Virus record (IMG/VR): IMGVR_UViG_3300044492_000058
Coordinates: 1-35,223 of that record
From: a virus
Strand: one strand, 5' to 3'
DNA length: 35,223 nt
Of this stretch, positions 1,136 to 10,920 are shown one piece after another. A program made the position numbers and the translations under genes. Positions within the stretch are counted from its first letter, which is position 1; the number at the start of each line of letters is the position of its first letter. The notes beneath the pieces were generated by a model. It saw only the letters and a list, made by a program, of their open reading frames with translations, was not told the DNA's origin and did no database searches.

Positions 1136-1369
1136 ATGGCACGCTATGACATTACCACAGTTGCTAGCCTACGTTGCGCGGTTAAAATGGCGAAAGCCAT
1201 TTACGTTCTGCCAAGATTTGGCACTAGTGAGCTATGGCTGAAAATCACTAAGGCGGAAGCAAGCAAGCTAATTGCTTGCTATGCTGATAGTGACACTCCG
1301 GAACACTGCGAAATGTTCGCTGGCACATTCGGCACAATGACCAATGGCGGAACACTTTACCTTGGATAG
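1136..1369 (+). CDS. Small conserved phage early protein, unknown function
   Basis: The 77-residue product begins MARYDITT and has the segment YVLPRFGTSELWLKITK at about residues 24-40, a pattern seen in small phage proteins of unknown role. The ATG at 1136 is chosen because GGAG lies nine bases upstream in a leader ending GTATATACA, the same arrangement found before the gene at 4403. A longer frame to 1079 would run through the leader hairpin and lacks a ribosome-binding site. It is the first gene of the rightward early series and is followed directly by hairpin cassette 1. Confidence 0.65.
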   Translation: MARYDITTVASLRCAVKMAKAIYVLPRFGTSELWLKITKAEASKLIACYADSDTPEHCEMFAGTFGTMTNGGTLYLG

Positions 1370-1431
1370 CTTGCTTTTCTGGTAGCATCTAGCTTGCTAG
1401 ATGCGGCCACAAGCGCAAGCTTGGCACTACC
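1369..1431 (+). repeat. Intergenic hairpin cassette 1
   Basis: This copy of the recurring early-region cassette has the left flank GCTTGCTTTT directly at the stop codon, a hairpin with arms GCATCTAGC (1385-1393) and GCTAGATGC (1396-1404), and the right flank AAGCGCAAGCTTGGCACTA. The flanks match the other copies, whereas the stem sequence does not. The flanking GCTTGC and GCAAGC can also pair with each other, closing an outer helix. Confidence 0.7.
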
Positions 1432-1454
1432 TAATCAAATGACAGGATAATGAA

Positions 1455-2534: not shown

Positions 2535-3140
2535 ATGGATAATGACATTAAAGCTTTGACGGATGCAATGCCAACCCTTCCGGCTAGATCGCAGGAATTC
2601 GCGCGTTCACTACTGGCACAAGCTGCGGATCGCGGATTAAGCGAAAAGCAAATGTTTTGGGTACGCAAACTAGTAGCCGATGCAAACAAGCCCAAGGAAA
2701 ACACTAGCGTTAACCTAGGGGATTTTTCTGGCGTAATTGAATTGTTTAAGAACGCCAGTGAACGCCTAAAACATCCCAAGGTTAGGCTACAATTGGCCGA
2801 TGGTTCGCCAGTAGCACTTTCCGTTGCTGGCACTAATGCACGCTTTCCTGGCACAGTGAATGTGACCGATGGCAAGCCATTTGGTTCCGCCATTTGGTAT
2901 GGCCGGGTTGACACTAGTGGCAAGTGGGATATATCCGGCAAGGTTGATATGGCAACGGCTACTGCCCTTACCGCCTTGCTGGCGAATTTCGCTGCTAATC
3001 CTGCCAAGGTTGCCAGCGCCTATGGCAAAGCCACAGGTAGCTGTTGCTTCTGTGCTCGCGAGCTTACAGACCAGCGCAGTGTATCAGTAGGCTATGGCCC
3101 AATTTGTGCCGATAAATTTTCATTGCCTTGGGGGAACTAA
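2535..3140 (+). CDS. DUF6011-like protein with C-terminal zinc-binding motif
   Basis: At 201 residues this is the largest protein of the first early block. Its C-terminal part (about 168-200) contains CCFCARELTDQRSVSVGYGP followed by IC: a CxxC...C arrangement typical of the DUF6011 family, which probably binds zinc. The N-terminal half is helical, and the middle (about 75-125) looks like a beta-rich domain. The family is widespread in phages and actinobacterial genomes, but its biochemical role is unknown. The start at 2535 follows AAAGGAATAGACCA. A degenerate hairpin cassette follows. Confidence 0.75.
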   Translation: MDNDIKALTDAMPTLPARSQEFARSLLAQAADRGLSEKQMFWVRKLVADANKPKENTSVNLGDFSGVIELFKNASERLKHPKVRLQLADGSPVALSVAGTNARFPGTVNVTDGKPFGSAIWYGRVDTSGKWDISGKVDMATATALTALLANFAANPAKVASAYGKATGSCCFCARELTDQRSVSVGYGPICADKFSLPWGN

Positions 3141-3200
3141 TAGCTTGCTCTTATGACAGCTACCTAGCTAGCTAGGTAGCTATCACCAGCGCACGCTGGC
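3140..3200 (+). repeat. Diverged hairpin cassette 4 (24-bp palindrome)
   Basis: AGCTTGCTCTT resembles the left flank of the other cassettes. It is followed by a perfect 24-bp palindrome at 3158-3181, made largely of repeated CTAG, and by a small stem CCAGCG / CGCTGG. The usual right flank is missing, so this copy is either degenerate or a variant. Confidence 0.55.
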
Positions 3201-3664: not shown

Positions 3665-3871
3665 ATGGCTTATGTGTCTCCCAATTTCGCCACTAAGAAA
3701 GCCCTTAAGGATGCTTTGGCCAGTGGCCAGACCATAGAAGTTTTCCAACCCGGCTTAGGTAGCGTGCCAACTAATGGCCGCATTGCACTAGAGGGGCCGC
3801 ATTACCCGAAGCCGCACAAGTGGTATGCGGAAGCAATGATGGAGAACGGAAAGCTAGTCAAAGTGAAGTAG
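3665..3871 (+). CDS. Small conserved phage protein (EGPHYPKPHKWYA type)
   Basis: The 68-residue product starts MAYVSPNFATKKALK and carries EGPHYPKPHKWYAEA at about residues 43-57 and a Lys/Val-rich end. Small phage proteins with this YVSPNF...PHYPKPHxWYA pattern are common and have no known function. ATG 3665 follows AAGGAAACC. Hairpin cassette 5 begins at its stop codon. Confidence 0.7.
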   Translation: MAYVSPNFATKKALKDALASGQTIEVFQPGLGSVPTNGRIALEGPHYPKPHKWYAEAMMENGKLVKVK

Positions 3872-3938
3872 CTTGCTTTTACCTATGGTTCTCCTGGCGT
3901 ACGCCAGGAGCTACCATAGGCAAGCGCAAGCTTGGGAC
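3871..3938 (+). repeat. Intergenic hairpin cassette 5
   Basis: The left flank GCTTGCTTTT precedes a long stem. CCTATGGT (3882-3889) pairs with ACCATAGG (3913-3920), around an inner perfect 20-bp palindrome (3891-3910) built from CTCCTGGC and GCCAGGAG. The right flank GCAAGCGCAAGCTTGGGACTA follows. It is the clearest example of a cassette whose stem incorporates the dispersed octamer in both orientations. Confidence 0.7.
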
Positions 3939-3959
3939 TAAACAACTAGGGAATATACA

Positions 3960-4166: not shown

Positions 4167-4324
4167 TGACAGGCACTGCTAAGGAAAGAACGGAAGGTAA
4201 GCGAATCCGCAAAGATCGCGCGATTAAGAAATTGCGTGGCCAATTTGAAGGCGTACGGCAGCAAATGATCCGCGATGAAGTTAATGCAAAGCGTAAACAA
4301 CTAATGGACAAGATGAAAAGTTAA
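4166..4324 (+). CDS. Small, very basic helical protein, unknown function
   Basis: This 52-residue gene starts at ATG 4166 inside the TAATG junction, with GGAG nine bases upstream, and stops at 4324. The product is dominated by Lys and Arg (segments KRIRKDRAIKK and AKRKQLMDKMK), so it could bind nucleic acid (inference). Hairpin cassette 6 starts directly at the stop codon, as it does for the other early genes, which supports the gene being real. Confidence 0.6.
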   Translation: MTGTAKERTEGKRIRKDRAIKKLRGQFEGVRQQMIRDEVNAKRKQLMDKMKS

Positions 4325-4388
4325 CTTGCTTTTACCATACTACCCTAGCTTGCTAGGGTAGCGTGGCAAGCGCAAGCTTGGCACTACA
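4322..4388 (+). repeat. Intergenic hairpin cassette 6
   Basis: ACTTGCTTTT, the perfect stem CTACCCTAGC (4340-4349) / GCTAGGGTAG (4352-4361), and then GGCAAGCGCAAGCTTGGCACTA. The flanks match cassettes 1, 2 and 5 and the stem is again unique. Confidence 0.7.
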
Positions 4389-4402
4389 ATGGAGTATATA
4401 CA

Positions 4403-5260: not shown

Positions 5261-5287
5261 ACTCCTGGCGGTCAATCCGCCAGGAGT
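5261..5287 (+). repeat. 11-bp perfect hairpin after the 4893 gene
   Basis: ACTCCTGGCGG (5261-5271) pairs with CCGCCAGGAGT (5277-5287) over TCAAT. Both arms are the dispersed octamer in opposite orientation. There is no U-tract after the stem, so intrinsic termination is unlikely. Confidence 0.6.
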
Positions 5288-5486: not shown

Positions 5487-5752
5487 TGCGTTTCTCACTA
5501 GAAATAAAGCAAGATATCTACAAAGTAGCCCGATTTCATTACTTAGATAAGCATATGTGCCAAGCTTGGAATCGTAATCGTTCTGAACGAGAATTACGAT
5601 TGTTGACAGGTTGGGTCTGGCAGTCTAAAATCGATAATCAATATCAAATGGGACTGAAAACAATAACTGCGGCCATGCGGGATGCATACTATACACTAAT
5701 AGAACAACGTTCCGCTCCTGGCGTGGTCAATCGGATTAGGAGAGTTGCGTAA
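5486..5752 (+). CDS. Small phage protein, unknown function
   Basis: The product is 88 residues, basic and helical, with many Arg and Trp residues (LTGWVWQSK near the middle). It overlaps its neighbours by one base on both sides (TAATG), which places it in the operon that leads to the Tas-like gene. The ribosome-binding sequence is AAAGGATAAA. No domain is recognised. A dispersed octamer copy (5715-5722) lies inside its coding sequence. Confidence 0.6.
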   Translation: MRFSLEIKQDIYKVARFHYLDKHMCQAWNRNRSERELRLLTGWVWQSKIDNQYQMGLKTITAAMRDAYYTLIEQRSAPGVVNRIRRVA

Positions 5753-6177
5753 TGAAACCGCAAACACCAGAACAAATCATAGCATATGGTGAAGTTGCCA
5801 CATCATTACGCGAATGGTGTAAAACTAACGGTAAAAGGGCACAGGATATTAACGCCATTGTCGGGAAACCAGCTAATTATTCTGCCGGATTTCAATGGTT
5901 GAACGGTAAGGGTGCGCCATCTCAGTATAATCGGGTATTACTTGCCAAAGCTACCGGAATTCCGGAAGAAAAACTAGCCAAAAGAAAGAGTTTCGATCAA
6001 GTAACAATTGAAAAACCACCTACCACAAAATTTGTCAGTAAAACTTCAGATATTTTGAGTTTTACTGTCACTGATACTGGCGAAGCAAGGATAAAACTAG
6101 ACGTTACACTGCCAATGCAAAGTGCAGTGCCATTGTTTAGGTTAATACTTGATGCTGGTGTCGTTATGGGGAGTTAA
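5752..6177 (+). CDS. Putative HTH-type DNA-binding regulator
   Basis: The product is 141 residues. Residues 15-75 look like a helix-turn-helix domain: a helix with LREWCKTNGKRAQDINAIVG, then WLNGKGAPSQYNRVLLAKATGIPEEKL, reminiscent of Cro/C1-type domains. The C-terminal part (about 95-141) is a small beta/alpha segment, perhaps for dimerisation. It precedes an Arc-type gene and the Tas-like gene in one operon with spacings of a few bases, so it may regulate that operon. HTH recognition is by pattern only, and the family is not certain. Confidence 0.5.
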   Translation: MKPQTPEQIIAYGEVATSLREWCKTNGKRAQDINAIVGKPANYSAGFQWLNGKGAPSQYNRVLLAKATGIPEEKLAKRKSFDQVTIEKPPTTKFVSKTSDILSFTVTDTGEARIKLDVTLPMQSAVPLFRLILDAGVVMGS

Positions 6178-6179
6178 TC

Positions 6180-6365
6180 ATGGGTAGACAAGTAACAACT
6201 AAAGATTTTCCACGTATTCACGTACGACTAACGCCAGAATTGTATGAATTTCTTAGTAAAGAAGCTGCTAAAGAATTCCGTACTATAAATAACGAAATAA
6301 CACTGCGGTTAACGCAATCAATGCTCCTGGCGAAGAAGGATGTAACCTATAATGAGCGAAACTGA
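6180..6365 (+). CDS. Arc-type ribbon-helix-helix DNA-binding protein
   Basis: The 61-residue product matches the Arc/MetJ fold. A short strand FPRIHVRLT (about 10-18) is followed by the helix PELYEFLSKEAAKE and by TINNEITLRLTQSMLLA (about 35-51), the usual place of the second helix. Such dimers bind operator DNA. The start at 6180 is two bases after the previous stop. Its 3' end overlaps the Tas-like gene by 14 bases, so the two are probably translationally coupled and co-regulated. It may be the operon's own repressor (inference). Confidence 0.75.
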   Translation: MGRQVTTKDFPRIHVRLTPELYEFLSKEAAKEFRTINNEITLRLTQSMLLAKKDVTYNERN

Positions 6366-7200
6366 AACAACTGATTTTGATGCTGCGGAAATTCTTGGTA
6401 GTATTGAGCGTTTAACTAAGGATTTGCGTAACGCATCTGTAACGTTATCTAATCGTGAAGTAAGATTTCTAGTAGATAGTTACTATGCAATGCAGCGTGA
6501 TCGTATTCGCGCTAGTCACCAGACTAGAACACTTGAAAAGAACGAAGAACCGCATGTAGTATTGAATTGGCTTACTGGACAGAGAAGTACACTAGAGAAA
6601 CAAGTTGCCAGAGCATTAGATGCATATAGTGCAAGTAATCCGGCAAGTGCATGGGCCAGGAGCATTACAGGTATTGGTCCGATCATTTCGGCAGGATTAG
6701 TAACTCATATTGACATAACAAAAGCGCCAACTGTTGGGCATATTTGGCGTTATGCTGGCCAAGATCCAACTATGGTATGGAATAAGAAAGAAAAACGCCC
6801 GTGGAATGGTTCATTGAAACGACTTTGTTGGATTATTGGCGAAAGTTTCGTTAAAGTATCTACTAACGATAACGATATTTATGGTAAAGTATACGTTGCT
6901 CGTAAGCAACAAGAAATTATTAAGAATGAAGCACTAGAATTCAAGTCACAAGCAGAACATGCATTAGCAACCAAGAATTTTAGTGCCGATACTGAGGCAA
7001 AGAAGCACTATTTAACTGGCAAATTACCGCCAGCCCATATACATGCTAGAGCGAAACGATATGCAGTAAAATTGTTCTTGTCACACCTGCATCATGTGAT
7101 GTATGAGTTGCACTTTAACGAGCCGCCGCCGAAGCCCTATGTTATTGACCACATGGGCCATACCCATTTCCTTGCGCCACCGAACTGGCCTAGGAAATAG
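6352..7200 (+). CDS. TasA-like Nop-domain protein of a TIGR-Tas system
   Basis: The 282-residue protein has a helical N-terminal region (about 1-100) and a part resembling the C-terminal domain of IS110 transposases and Nop proteins: SITGIGPIISAGLV (104-117, a helix-hairpin-helix GIGP), WRYAGQDP (132-139), NGSLKRLCWIIGESF (152-166) and a His-rich helix HARAKRYAVKLFLSHLHHVM (231-250). It ends GHTHFLAPPNWP. The DEDD/RuvC domain that IS110 transposases carry at the N-terminus is missing, and there is no HNH motif, so it is not a transposase, TasR or TasH. Twelve bases after its stop a 36-base-period dual-spacer array begins. Nop-domain protein plus such an array defines TIGR-Tas. By analogy it binds tigRNA and target DNA, and without a nuclease it would only bind or would recruit a partner. 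Confidence 0.82.
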   Translation: MSETETTDFDAAEILGSIERLTKDLRNASVTLSNREVRFLVDSYYAMQRDRIRASHQTRTLEKNEEPHVVLNWLTGQRSTLEKQVARALDAYSASNPASAWARSITGIGPIISAGLVTHIDITKAPTVGHIWRYAGQDPTMVWNKKEKRPWNGSLKRLCWIIGESFVKVSTNDNDIYGKVYVARKQQEIIKNEALEFKSQAEHALATKNFSADTEAKKHYLTGKLPPAHIHARAKRYAVKLFLSHLHHVMYELHFNEPPPKPYVIDHMGHTHFLAPPNWPRK

Positions 7201-7212
7201 TCAAGCTTCAAG

Positions 7213-8756
7213 AGTGTGCCACTAATATCGGAACGAGTTATTCCTGATCAGAGTACCAACAAGAGCGAACGAGTTACTTCTAGTGACAGTAACATCTCAG
7301 AAGAACGAGTTAGCAAACCAGATAGTAACATGAATGAATAACGAACCAGCGCGCTGGATAGTAACATACTTCTGAAGTGAGTCAGGTATAGTAATAGTAA
7401 CATGGCGTCGAAACGAGTTATTGCTGATCAGAGTGCCAACAAGAGCGAACGAATTAATCCCAGTGAGTGTGCCAAGGTAGACTAATGAGTCACCTGTTCA
7501 GATAGTAACATTTTAACCGAACGAGTTAAACGGAAGAAGTGTACCATCAATCGAGAACGAGTTATCAAGAAAGAATAGTACCATCAGACCAGAACGAGTC
7601 ATCTAAGTGGATAGTAACAAAGGGTTTGAACGAGTTAGCAGATCGGACAGTAACATTGTAATAGAACGAGTTAGGTTCTCAGATAGTACCATTTGACATG
7701 AACGAACCACGCTATCAGTGATAGTATCATGATTGTCGAGTGAGTCATTCCCCGTAACAGTAACACATTGCCGAAACGAGCCACAAACTAGAGAGTGTGC
7801 TAAGTAAATGGAGCGAGTTATTGGTTCATGAGTGTACCCGCGAAACCGAACGAGCCATTTGGAGCCAGAGTTCCATTCGAGTAACAGCGAAAGTTACTTG
7901 GCGATAGTAACATAGGAGCGGAACGAATCAGTGATGATATAGTGTACCATCATAAGTGAATGAGTCACAAAGCATGAATAGTACCATTTCACACGAACGA
8001 GTTAATGTTCCGGAGTGTACCATCGATCAAGTAACGAGTCATGACATTATAGTGTACCAGAAAGCGTAAACGAGTTACCTCTTACGATAGTAACATGCTA
8101 GATGAACGAATAAATTAAGGAGGAAACGAGAGAGTTATTATTCCAAGTGTACCACTGTGCAGAACGAAAGTTAAGTTCGCGAATAGTACCAGACCGTTGG
8201 AACGAGTTAGAAAATGCCGAGAGTACCATCGCTAACGAACGAGTCAAATCACCTTAGTGTGCCAACAAAATGTGAATGAGTTACGGAAGCAAACAGTAAC
8301 ATTTCCGATGAACGAGTTATGCACTGGAATAGTAACAAGAAAGGATAACGAACCAATTAGTCGGAGTGTGCCAATTGTAGGAGTGAACCACCTATCTCGG
8401 ATTAGTAACAAAGATAGGAGAGTGAACCAATCCGGTTGATAGTAACAAAATTGGTCAGTGAACCCTCAAAATCGATAGTATCATTGTAGGGAAGTGTAAC
8501 CAATTGGTTGGTTAGTAACAGCAACCCCGAGTGAGCTATGACCGGCTAGTGTACCACTGGTGTTTAAGCGAATCGTCATATGAGATAGTAACAAATGAAA
8601 CGAGTGAACCACCCGTCTTGATAGTAACAACGTACGGTAGTGAATCATTTAGTCGCGATAGTAACACAATGGTAGAATGAACCACCCTGCATGATAGTAA
8701 CAATCTGGTTTAGTGAACCATCGTGTATGACAGTAACAATTTCCCGGAGTGTTTCT
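7213..8756 (+). repeat. TIGR array, 42 units of ~36 bases with two 9-base spacers each
   Basis: The unit is motif 1 (consensus ATAGTAACA, variants AGTGTACCA, AGTGTGCCA, AGAGTACCA), a 9-base spacer A, motif 2 (AACGAGTTA or AGTGAACCA, nearly always with central GA) and a 9-base spacer B. Clean units start at 7250, 7286, 7322, 7358, 7394, 7430 and 7466. I count 42 motif-1 copies from 7213 to 8730, most exactly 36 bases apart and some 37-38. The last unit has a degenerate motif 2. Spacers share no common sequence. Published TIGR arrays are processed to 36-nt tigRNAs with two 9-nt spacers, which fits exactly. The array starts just after the Tas-like gene on the same strand, so it is probably co-transcribed. 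The conserved GA in motif 2 would suit a kink-turn, as in box C/D RNA (inference). Confidence 0.88.
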
Positions 8757-8775
8757 CCGGGCGGATCATTCCGCC
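8743..8775. terminator. Twin hairpins closing the TIGR array
   Basis: CCCGGAG (8743-8749) pairs with CTCCGGG (8755-8761), and overlapping it GGCGGA (8760-8765) pairs with TCCGCC (8770-8775). They lie between the end of the rightward array and the end of the leftward late operon, where a bidirectional barrier would be expected. Neither strand has a U-tract after the stems, so intrinsic termination is unproven. They could instead set the 3' end of the array transcript. Confidence 0.45.
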
Positions 8776-8780
8776 AGGAG

Positions 8781-9525: not shown

Positions 9526-10920
9526 TTATTCTGTTGTTCGATCAATAATTAAGCCGCAATCAGCAAGTGCAGTGATAAGTGAAGCAAGCGCATTACTTCC
9601 ATTGCGTGAGCCGGAAACTATTGGTTTGGTGGTAAAAGCAACTGGTAGTTTACTATCAACATATTGTTTCGTTGCGGCTTGTAAAGCAGTTGTTGGATCG
9701 GCTGGTAATACTACTGGAACAGTTGAGGTAAATGCAGTAGTTGACCATGAAGCACGAGTCGCACCAAGAACGGATATTCCAACAACACCAGCACCAAGTC
9801 TGCCAAAACCACTGGTGGCGTCTGTTGAAAATGTATAACTAGGATTTGCCGCAGTACCATCAACATTTCTAAACAAAACAGTTGAAGTCATTACTGTTGA
9901 TTGGATTGCTAATCGTTGCCCACCAGCAACGGCAAAACATACCGCACCAGCAGAACCAAAAACACCTGTTGTTAAATTACCCGCAAAATTAAGTGTGGGT
10001 GCCGCCGCCGTACTCAGAGGCATTGTTAGCGCACCAGACATAGTATCGCCAGCTTTAAGTAAACGTAAATTATCAGCCGTATCAACATAAGATTGTGTTA
10101 CACCACCAGCCGGAATGGCGGCAATGGAATTATCTACATATCGTTTGTTTGCCGCATCATCAATAGTAGTAGGATCGCCAAGGTTTCTAATACGATTATT
10201 TGCCATCGTTAATGATTTGCGAAATTCTATTGTCGCGGTAGAGAAGAAACAAATATCTTGCTCTCCTGTTCCACCAACACCAGTAAATCCGCACATCCAC
10301 AAGTTACCGGCATAGTATAACAGTCCGAATGCAGGACTCGATCCATCATGGAAACGAATAGTTGGAGTTATACTACCATTTAGCAGAAGATTTTGACCAA
10401 CATTAGATGCATTAGCTGGCGCGGTAATTTGTAACTGTCCAGTTATAGTATCGCCAGTTTTTAATACACGCAACGAATCCTGCGTATCAACATACGATTT
10501 CGTTACGTCACCAATTGCGGATAATACATCACCAGACATGGTAACGGTAGTGCCATCAATCCGCACACCACCCCGAATAGTAGTAGATGCTGTCGGTAAA
10601 GTATAAGTTAAGCCGGGATCACCTTGATCACCTTTGTCACCTTTATCTCCTTTGTCACCTTTCGGACCCGGAACAGTTGAATCTGCACCGGGTATTCCTT
10701 CATCACCTTTATTTCCCTTATCTCCTTGATCACCTTTATCACCTTTATCACCTTTATCTCCTGGCGGGCCAGGAGCCATTACATTCGATACATCAATAAA
10801 ATTTGTTTCTGGTGGTGTAACTACAATAGAAGTTACTTGTTGAGTAGGAAGAATTACTTCAACAACAAACGAGGTTGCTTCAATTACTTCCACTTCAACA
10901 ACAATTGGCATGTCGTTCAT
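9526..10920 (-). CDS. Tail fibre with collagen-like repeats
   Basis: The product is 464 residues. A short beta-rich N-terminus (1-48) is followed by two runs of Gly-X-Y triplets (about 50-77 and 84-104, mostly GDK, GDQ, GNK) that should form a collagen-like triple helix. The rest (about 105-464) contains segments such as DTITGQLQI and DTMSGALTM, and the phrases ATKQYVDSKL and ANKRYVDN, a pattern of trimeric phage fibre shafts also seen in the 15452 and 13911 products. It overlaps the upstream gene by ATGA. It probably contacts the host surface, and no enzymatic domain is seen. Confidence 0.8.
   Translation of the reverse strand: MNDMPIVVEVEVIEATSFVVEVILPTQQVTSIVVTPPETNFIDVSNVMAPGPPGDKGDKGDKGDQGDKGNKGDEGIPGADSTVPGPKGDKGDKGDKGDQGDPGLTYTLPTASTTIRGGVRIDGTTVTMSGDVLSAIGDVTKSYVDTQDSLRVLKTGDTITGQLQITAPANASNVGQNLLLNGSITPTIRFHDGSSPAFGLLYYAGNLWMCGFTGVGGTGEQDICFFSTATIEFRKSLTMANNRIRNLGDPTTIDDAANKRYVDNSIAAIPAGGVTQSYVDTADNLRLLKAGDTMSGALTMPLSTAAAPTLNFAGNLTTGVFGSAGAVCFAVAGGQRLAIQSTVMTSTVLFRNVDGTAANPSYTFSTDATSGFGRLGAGVVGISVLGATRASWSTTAFTSTVPVVLPADPTTALQAATKQYVDSKLPVAFTTKPIVSGSRNGSNALASLITALADCGLIIDRTTE

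What the first reader, a model, noticed from the sequence alone, without database searches (positions are those of the whole stretch)
6352..8756. Complete TIGR-Tas locus: Nop-type protein gene followed by a 42-unit dual-spacer array
Directly seen: a 36-base period made of two different conserved 9-mers, each followed by a 9-base variable spacer, repeated 42 times without an ORF, 12 bases after a gene for an IS110/Nop-like protein. Established knowledge: TIGR arrays in phages give 36-nt tigRNAs with two short spacers that guide Tas proteins to DNA. The exact match of period, spacer length and neighbour protein makes a chance or simple-repeat explanation unlikely. About 80 spacers is a large guide set for a phage.
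Basis: partly seen in the sequence, partly recalled or inferred. Interest (0 to 1): 0.95.

Follow-up and report, generated by a model that had tools for sequence, protein, structure and literature searches.

The report
Phage TIGR-TasA dual-spacer guide array
This phage carries a genuine TIGR-TasA system, a nuclease-free RNA-guided DNA-binding protein with a 42-unit dual-spacer guide array; the family was described in 2025, but comparison with a sibling phage shows how such arrays change, by gain, loss or swap of whole guide units.

Summary
Gene 6352-7200 encodes a 282-aa Tas protein (NCBIfam NF052498 199.9 bits, cut-off 100; best structural matches TasH Z 20 and TasR Z 19). The model has no nuclease domain, so it is a TasA. 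The array (7200-8751) has 42 units.

Base-pair covariation settles how units are read. AACGAGTTA/AGTGAACCA is the edge repeat: the 3' half of each copy pairs with the 5' half of the NEXT copy (33/33 in the window; 96.5% over about 70 loci, about 90% at every other offset). ATAGTAACA is the loop repeat and pairs within itself. The inferred guide runs mid-edge to mid-edge, about 36 nt, as published for TIGR.

New here: a sibling phage with an identical Tas protein shares 30 of 41 modules almost unchanged (spacers 1.3% diverged, fourfold sites 13%). The others are inserted, lost or swapped whole and internally, without half-module hybrids.

Guide pairs match no Tas-phage DNA, nor their own genome, above shuffled controls, and four host-genome patterns gave nothing; targets and role stay unknown. 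Best guess: multiplexed RNA-guided DNA binding against rival elements. New member of a known kind.

The parts
6352..7200 (+). tasA gene, 282 aa, solo Nop-domain TIGR-associated protein without nuclease domain
   Evidence: NCBIfam NF052498 199.9 bits vs cut-off 100; phmmer to TasR 9mty 7.6e-16 and TasH 21kl 2.3e-10; AF2 model pLDDT 88.5, all helical; residues ~31-281 align to TasH 65-309 (Z 20) and TasR 111-322 (Z 19.3)
7200..8751 (+). TIGR dual-repeat array, 42 units of ~36 nt, co-oriented with tasA; [quoted passage not shown]
   Evidence: motif-chain segmentation; module list; null none
7230..7240 (+). example of the EDGE repeat (core AACGAGTTA, 7232-7240); variants AGTGAACCA, AATGAGTCA, AACGAACCA recur every ~36 nt
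   Evidence: 3' half of copy i pairs with 5' half of copy i+1: 33/33 for both positions in the window; 96.5% vs ~90% at other offsets over ~70 loci
7320..7330 (+). example of the LOOP repeat (core ATAGTAACA, 7322-7330); variants AGTGTACCA, AGAGTACCA, ACAGTAACA
   Evidence: pairs within itself, positions 3-8, G-C 16 and T-A 15 of 42; z 9 over pooled loci, none to the next copy
7706..7779 (+). two whole guide modules present here and absent from the sibling phage L001, junctions at mid-edge
   Evidence: module alignment
7345..7452 (+). three modules replaced by two unrelated ones in L001; 7417-7452 is a near copy of module 7237-7272 (one spacer base different)
8110..8133 (+). degenerate 24-nt fragment inside the array, conserved identically in L001
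8753..8780 (+). hairpin after the array (CTCCGGGCGG-ATCATT-CCGCCAGGAG), probable transcription end, weak T tail
   Evidence: fold -20.6 kcal/mol, z -3.0; not listed by the terminator scan
6180..6365 (+). small Arc-like ribbon-helix-helix gene overlapping the tas start by 14 nt, so probably co-transcribed
   Evidence: Pfam Arc 19.2 bits, cut-off 20.4
5752..6177 (+). upstream gene on the same strand, weak match to phage repressors
   Evidence: phrog_4, E 9e-4

Best explanation
A phage-borne TIGR-TasA system. The tasA operon is transcribed through the array into one long precursor. A host RNase, helped by TasA, cuts in the middle of each edge repeat to give 42 guide RNAs of about 36 nt (half edge - spacer A - loop - spacer B - half edge), whose two ends pair. 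A TasA dimer holds one guide and binds 18-bp DNA sites of the form 5'-A-rc(B)-3', each spacer pairing with a different strand, without cutting. Most likely it serves as a multiplexed, nuclease-free DNA-binding roadblock or repressor against other mobile elements (this last step about 50% likely). Shown here: protein family and fold, array anatomy, end pairing by covariation, strong conservation of guides, whole-module turnover. Inferred from published TasR/TasH/TasA work: processing, DNA binding, target geometry. Inferred only: the biological role.
For: Protein. Array anatomy. Covariation of successive half-edges and within the loop. Array on the same strand next to tas in at least 80 of 86 relatives. 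Purifying selection: tas has 31 synonymous and 0 nonsynonymous codon changes against L001, and spacers of conserved modules are 1.3% diverged while fourfold sites are 13%. A and B spacers are kept or lost together, as expected if both halves of a target must match. Published TIGR features.
Against: No target found: nothing with 0-1 mismatch for the tested window guides in own or cousin genomes; no excess over shuffled pairs for 1267 modules in 812 kb of Tas-phage DNA; no hit for four guides of prophage arrays in five host genomes; viral-collection matches for five guides at chance level. No RNA data. The role against mobile elements is therefore a guess.
Confidence: 0.93

Rival explanations
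1. Same TIGR-TasA machinery, but the guides regulate genes of the host (or phage timing) as RNA-guided repressors, not rival elements.
For: Nuclease-free effector; next to Arc-like and repressor-like genes; guides under purifying selection as for constant targets.
Against: No self target in the phage; no exact host site for the four prophage guides tested, though the host of the window phage is unknown.
Confidence: 0.3
2. TasA bends target DNA to assist phage recombination or integration (proposed for TasA by Faure et al., PMC12045711).
For: TasR bends DNA by about 180 degrees; fold close to IS110 recombinases, Z 14.
Against: 42 different guides are hard to square with one integration site; no self target.
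Confidence: 0.08
3. An IS110-type transposase gene next to an unrelated satellite repeat.
For: PHROG family is labelled transposase; weak Pfam Transposase_20 match.
Against: No DEDD catalytic domain in the model; IS110 model 17.8 bits vs cut-off 140, TIGR-Tas model 199.9 vs 100; gene and array occur together in at least 80 loci.
Confidence: 0.01
4. CRISPR array.
For: Interspaced repeats with variable spacers.
Against: Two alternating 9-nt repeats and 9-nt spacers, Nop-domain neighbour, no common adaptation or effector gene nearby.
Confidence: 0.005

Closest known systems
TIGR-Tas, dual-repeat TasA type (Faure et al. 2025, PMC12045711)
   Same: Solo Nop protein, alternating ~9-nt repeats, ~9-nt spacers, 36-nt unit, truncated edges at both ends, box C/D-like pair in both repeats plus one extra pair in the edge repeat
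   Different: 42 units, whereas 5 to 15 is the usual number given; repeat motif is A-R...YYA rather than the UG...CCA of TasR arrays
TasH of Salicola phage CGphi29 (PDB 21kl, 9w04) and TasR (PDB 9mty)
   Same: Nop domain fold, Z 19-20 over 194-229 residues
   Different: They carry an N-terminal HNH or RuvC nuclease; here the aligned part begins at residue ~31, so that domain is missing
IS110-family bridge-RNA recombinases (IS621, ISCro4)
   Same: Related RNA-binding fold, Z 14
   Different: No DEDD catalytic domain, no bridge RNA, long guide array instead

Membership tests
TIGR-Tas (dual-repeat) | Tas protein with Nop domain | tested here: met
   NF052498 199.9 bits, cut-off 100; TasH Z 20, TasR Z 19.3
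TIGR-Tas (dual-repeat) | Two alternating 8-12-nt repeats with ~9-nt spacers, ~36-nt unit, next to tas | tested here: met
TIGR-Tas (dual-repeat) | Edge repeat: box C of one copy pairs with box D of the next, plus one additional covarying pair; loop repeat pairs within itself | tested here: met
TIGR-Tas (dual-repeat) | Array begins and ends with truncated edge repeats | tested here: met
   AATAGTCA at the tas stop; AGTG at 8748-8751
TIGR-Tas (dual-repeat) | Rho-independent terminator after the array | tested here: inconclusive
   Stable hairpin but poor T tail; not called by the scan
TIGR-Tas (dual-repeat) | Processing to 36-nt tigRNAs | not testable with these tools
   Only indirect support from end-to-end covariation
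TIGR-Tas (dual-repeat) | Tandem-spacer guided DNA binding | not testable with these tools
   No target found
TasA subtype | No fused nuclease domain | tested here: met
   All-helical 282-aa model; only ~30 residues precede the coiled coil
TasR / TasH subtype | N-terminal RuvC or HNH domain | tested here: not met
IS110 transposase | N-terminal DEDD catalytic domain; family model score | tested here: not met
   transpos_IS110 17.8 bits vs cut-off 140; no such domain in the model
CRISPR-Cas | Single repeat type with longer spacers | tested here: not met
   two alternating 9-nt repeats

The most novel reading that the evidence does not exclude
TIGR arrays gain guides by insertion of complete units with the length and ends of the mature guide RNA, anywhere in the array. 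This could mean copying from a processed tigRNA (RNA-templated or tigRNA-guided insertion) or a Tas-directed exchange at mid-edge, i.e. a way of acquiring guides unlike CRISPR adaptation. The evidence does not separate this from ordinary recombination followed by selection that keeps spacer pairs together.
Probability: 0.1. Interest if true: 0.88.

Novelty: new member of a known kind. Interest (0 to 1): 0.56.

Why it matters
The discoverers of TIGR-Tas name the origin, maintenance and expansion of arrays, and the natural targets, as open. The window and L001 are sibling phages with the same Tas protein and long arrays of which 30 modules are shared and 11 differ, which makes array change directly readable. 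The covariation test gives a sequence-only way to tell edge from loop repeat and to predict guide ends. The finding that A and B spacers are conserved or replaced together supports tandem targeting by TasA, the Tas type whose function is least understood.

Tried and rejected
Edge/loop assignment from array ends alone (the ATAGTAACA repeat looked like the first and last complete copy) was wrong; covariation reversed it. First structure prediction with 4 sequences failed (pLDDT 37.5); repeated with 47. Guide-pair matches, both pairings and both geometries, in own and cousin genomes: nothing beyond chance. The same for 1267 modules in 812 kb. Four guide patterns from prophage arrays (Halomonas, Acidobacteriaceae and Propionivibrio loci) in five host genomes: none. 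Five conserved window guides in the viral collection: 1-5 matches each; the five matches for module 7634-7669 are one homologous family (a site in a gene resembling a metallophosphatase by eye), so one event, in line with the 1-2 independent matches of the other guides; kept only as a weak lead. Conserved partner gene next to tas: none common across loci. No Tas match in plasmids, only CGphi29 in phage records, nothing in PADLOC, no Rfam family.

Full report
OBSERVATION. Segmentation with two position-weight matrices finds an alternation of two motifs from 7193 to 8738, with 42 copies of the ATAGTAACA type (X) and about as many of the AACGAGTTA type (Y), spaced about 18 nt. Shuffled sequence gives no such chain and the opposite strand has none. 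The variable stretches are 9 nt, sometimes 8 or 10; the base just before each repeat is G in about 60% of copies, so part of the ninth base may belong to the repeat. The gene 6352-7200 ends inside the first, truncated repeat.

PROTEIN. Sequence search against solved structures gives TasR (9mty, 7.6e-16) and TasH (21kl, 2.3e-10). NCBIfam has a TIGR-Tas model, which scores 199.9 bits against a cut-off of 100, while the IS110 model scores 17.8 against 140. With 47 relatives AlphaFold2 gives pLDDT 88.5, pTM 0.83, an all-helical chain. VIA-align 2 places residues ~31-281 on TasH 65-309 (Z 20, 214-229 residues, rmsd 3.3-3.7) and on TasR 111-322 (Z 19.3, 194 residues, rmsd 2.2); IS621 and ISCro4 follow at Z 14; other helical proteins stay at or below 8.1. 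TasH and TasR have their nuclease before the aligned part; here only about 30 residues precede it. The protein is a TasA.

ARRAY ARCHITECTURE BY COVARIATION. In the window, positions 7 and 8 of a Y repeat pair with positions 4 and 3 of the next Y repeat in 33 of 33 cases each (shuffles 26.0 and 26.7; p at the floor of 2000 shuffles). The same holds in 47 of 47 in the relative L002. Within one Y copy there is no such signal. X repeats pair within themselves (positions 3-8: G-C 16, T-A 15 of 42) and not with the next copy. Over about 70 non-redundant arrays the Y next-copy pairs stand at 1307 and 1308 of 1355 (within-locus shuffles 1226 and 1236, z about 17), and X within-copy at 1336 of 1485 (1282, z 9). 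By offset, only +1 stands out for Y (96.5-96.6% against 88.6-91.2% at the others from -3 to +3). This is the published TIGR layout: the box C/D pair in both repeats, and one additional covarying pair in the edge repeat, formed between two different edge repeats on one mature RNA. So Y is the edge repeat, X the loop repeat, and the mature guide runs from mid-Y to mid-Y. Small-RNA data were not available; processing is inferred.

RELATIVES. 246 viral contigs encode relatives; the best 80 and five bacterial loci (Halomonas, Acidobacteriaceae, a Solibacteraceae MAG, a Gemmatimonadetes MAG, Propionivibrio) were fetched. At least 80 carry an array on the tas strand; median size about 18 units, maximum about 57; the window's 42 is among the eight largest. 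No other gene is common to the neighbourhoods.

ARRAY CHANGE. L001 (IMGVR_UViG_3300025930_000054) encodes an identical Tas protein with 32 base differences, 31 synonymous codons and no amino-acid change; fourfold sites differ at 15 of 115, flanks 5-7%. Of 41 module entries in each array, 30 correspond with 0-3 edits and the rest show no clear homology. Differences come as whole modules: two present only here (7706-7779), one only in L001 (3695-3730), one-for-one swaps (8206-8242; 8316-8351), three for two (7345-7452). No half-module is shared (A-only 0, B-only 0); one module (7309-7344) has a weakly similar A spacer in L001 and may be a diverged or mixed case. Changes lie throughout the array, not at one end. 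In conserved modules spacers differ at 7 of 534 bases and repeats at 9 of 522, well under the fourfold rate; modules were counted as conserved by similarity, but the split is bimodal, so the bias is small. Sixteen other related pairs show the same pattern with few hybrids. Near-identical modules occur within 14 of 73 arrays, usually not adjacent (25 pairs, 8 in cross-array control), e.g. 7237-7272 and 7417-7452; so copying contributes, but most modules have no relative in their array. Simplest reading: recombination plus selection that keeps spacer A and spacer B together because a target needs both. A dedicated acquisition route is not excluded.

TARGETS. The expected site, derived from the published cleavage geometry, is 5'-A-(0-2)-rc(B)-3'. 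No own-phage or cousin site for window guides with 0-1 mismatch, no excess over shuffled pairs among Tas phages, none for the four guides tested in host genomes of prophage arrays, and chance-level matches in the viral collection. With 18-nt sites, exact matches in very large collections are expected by chance, so the test has little power beyond related genomes.

CONTEXT. The contig is a tailed phage with contractile-tail genes on the minus strand (portal, major head, sheath, tape measure, baseplate, fibres). tasA sits in the plus-strand region of small genes, overlapping an Arc-like gene.

VERDICT. A genuine TIGR-TasA locus, a new member of a known kind, with unusually many guides and a sibling that exposes array evolution.

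Noticed in passing
window, e.g. 3891-3910, 5262-5286, 6324-6332, 8772-8780 and further sites (24 in all): The 9-mer CTCCTGGCG occurs 24 times in 35 kb (0.1 expected, about 275-fold over a Markov expectation), 30 times in relative G2 and 12 in G1, but 0-1 times in G3/G4; both strands, inside genes and as inverted pairs in hairpins. It resembles a DNA-uptake or other genome-wide signal.
   Followed up: partly
window 1368-1438, 1897-1980, 2444-2503, 3140-3199, 3866-3949, 4321-4395: Repeated intergenic cassettes (AGCTTGCTTTT ... CAAGCGCAAGCTTGG around a hairpin) separate the small early genes; 68-97% alike.
   Followed up: no
L105 1151-1168 and homologous places in L102, L103, L104, L106: Exact gap-free site for guide module 7634-7669 in a gene resembling a metallophosphatase, in one phage family; one independent event, not above chance.
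   Followed up: partly
window 9526-10920: Tail-region protein with a collagen-like triple-helix stretch (Pfam Collagen).
   Followed up: no
window 8110-8133: 24-nt degenerate array fragment without a loop repeat, identical in the sibling phage, so retained although it cannot encode a normal guide.
   Followed up: no
L100 9789-9896: Two guides two units apart with identical spacer B and one-base-different spacer A (GAAATAACG/GAAGTAACG), as if to cover two variants of one target.
   Followed up: partly
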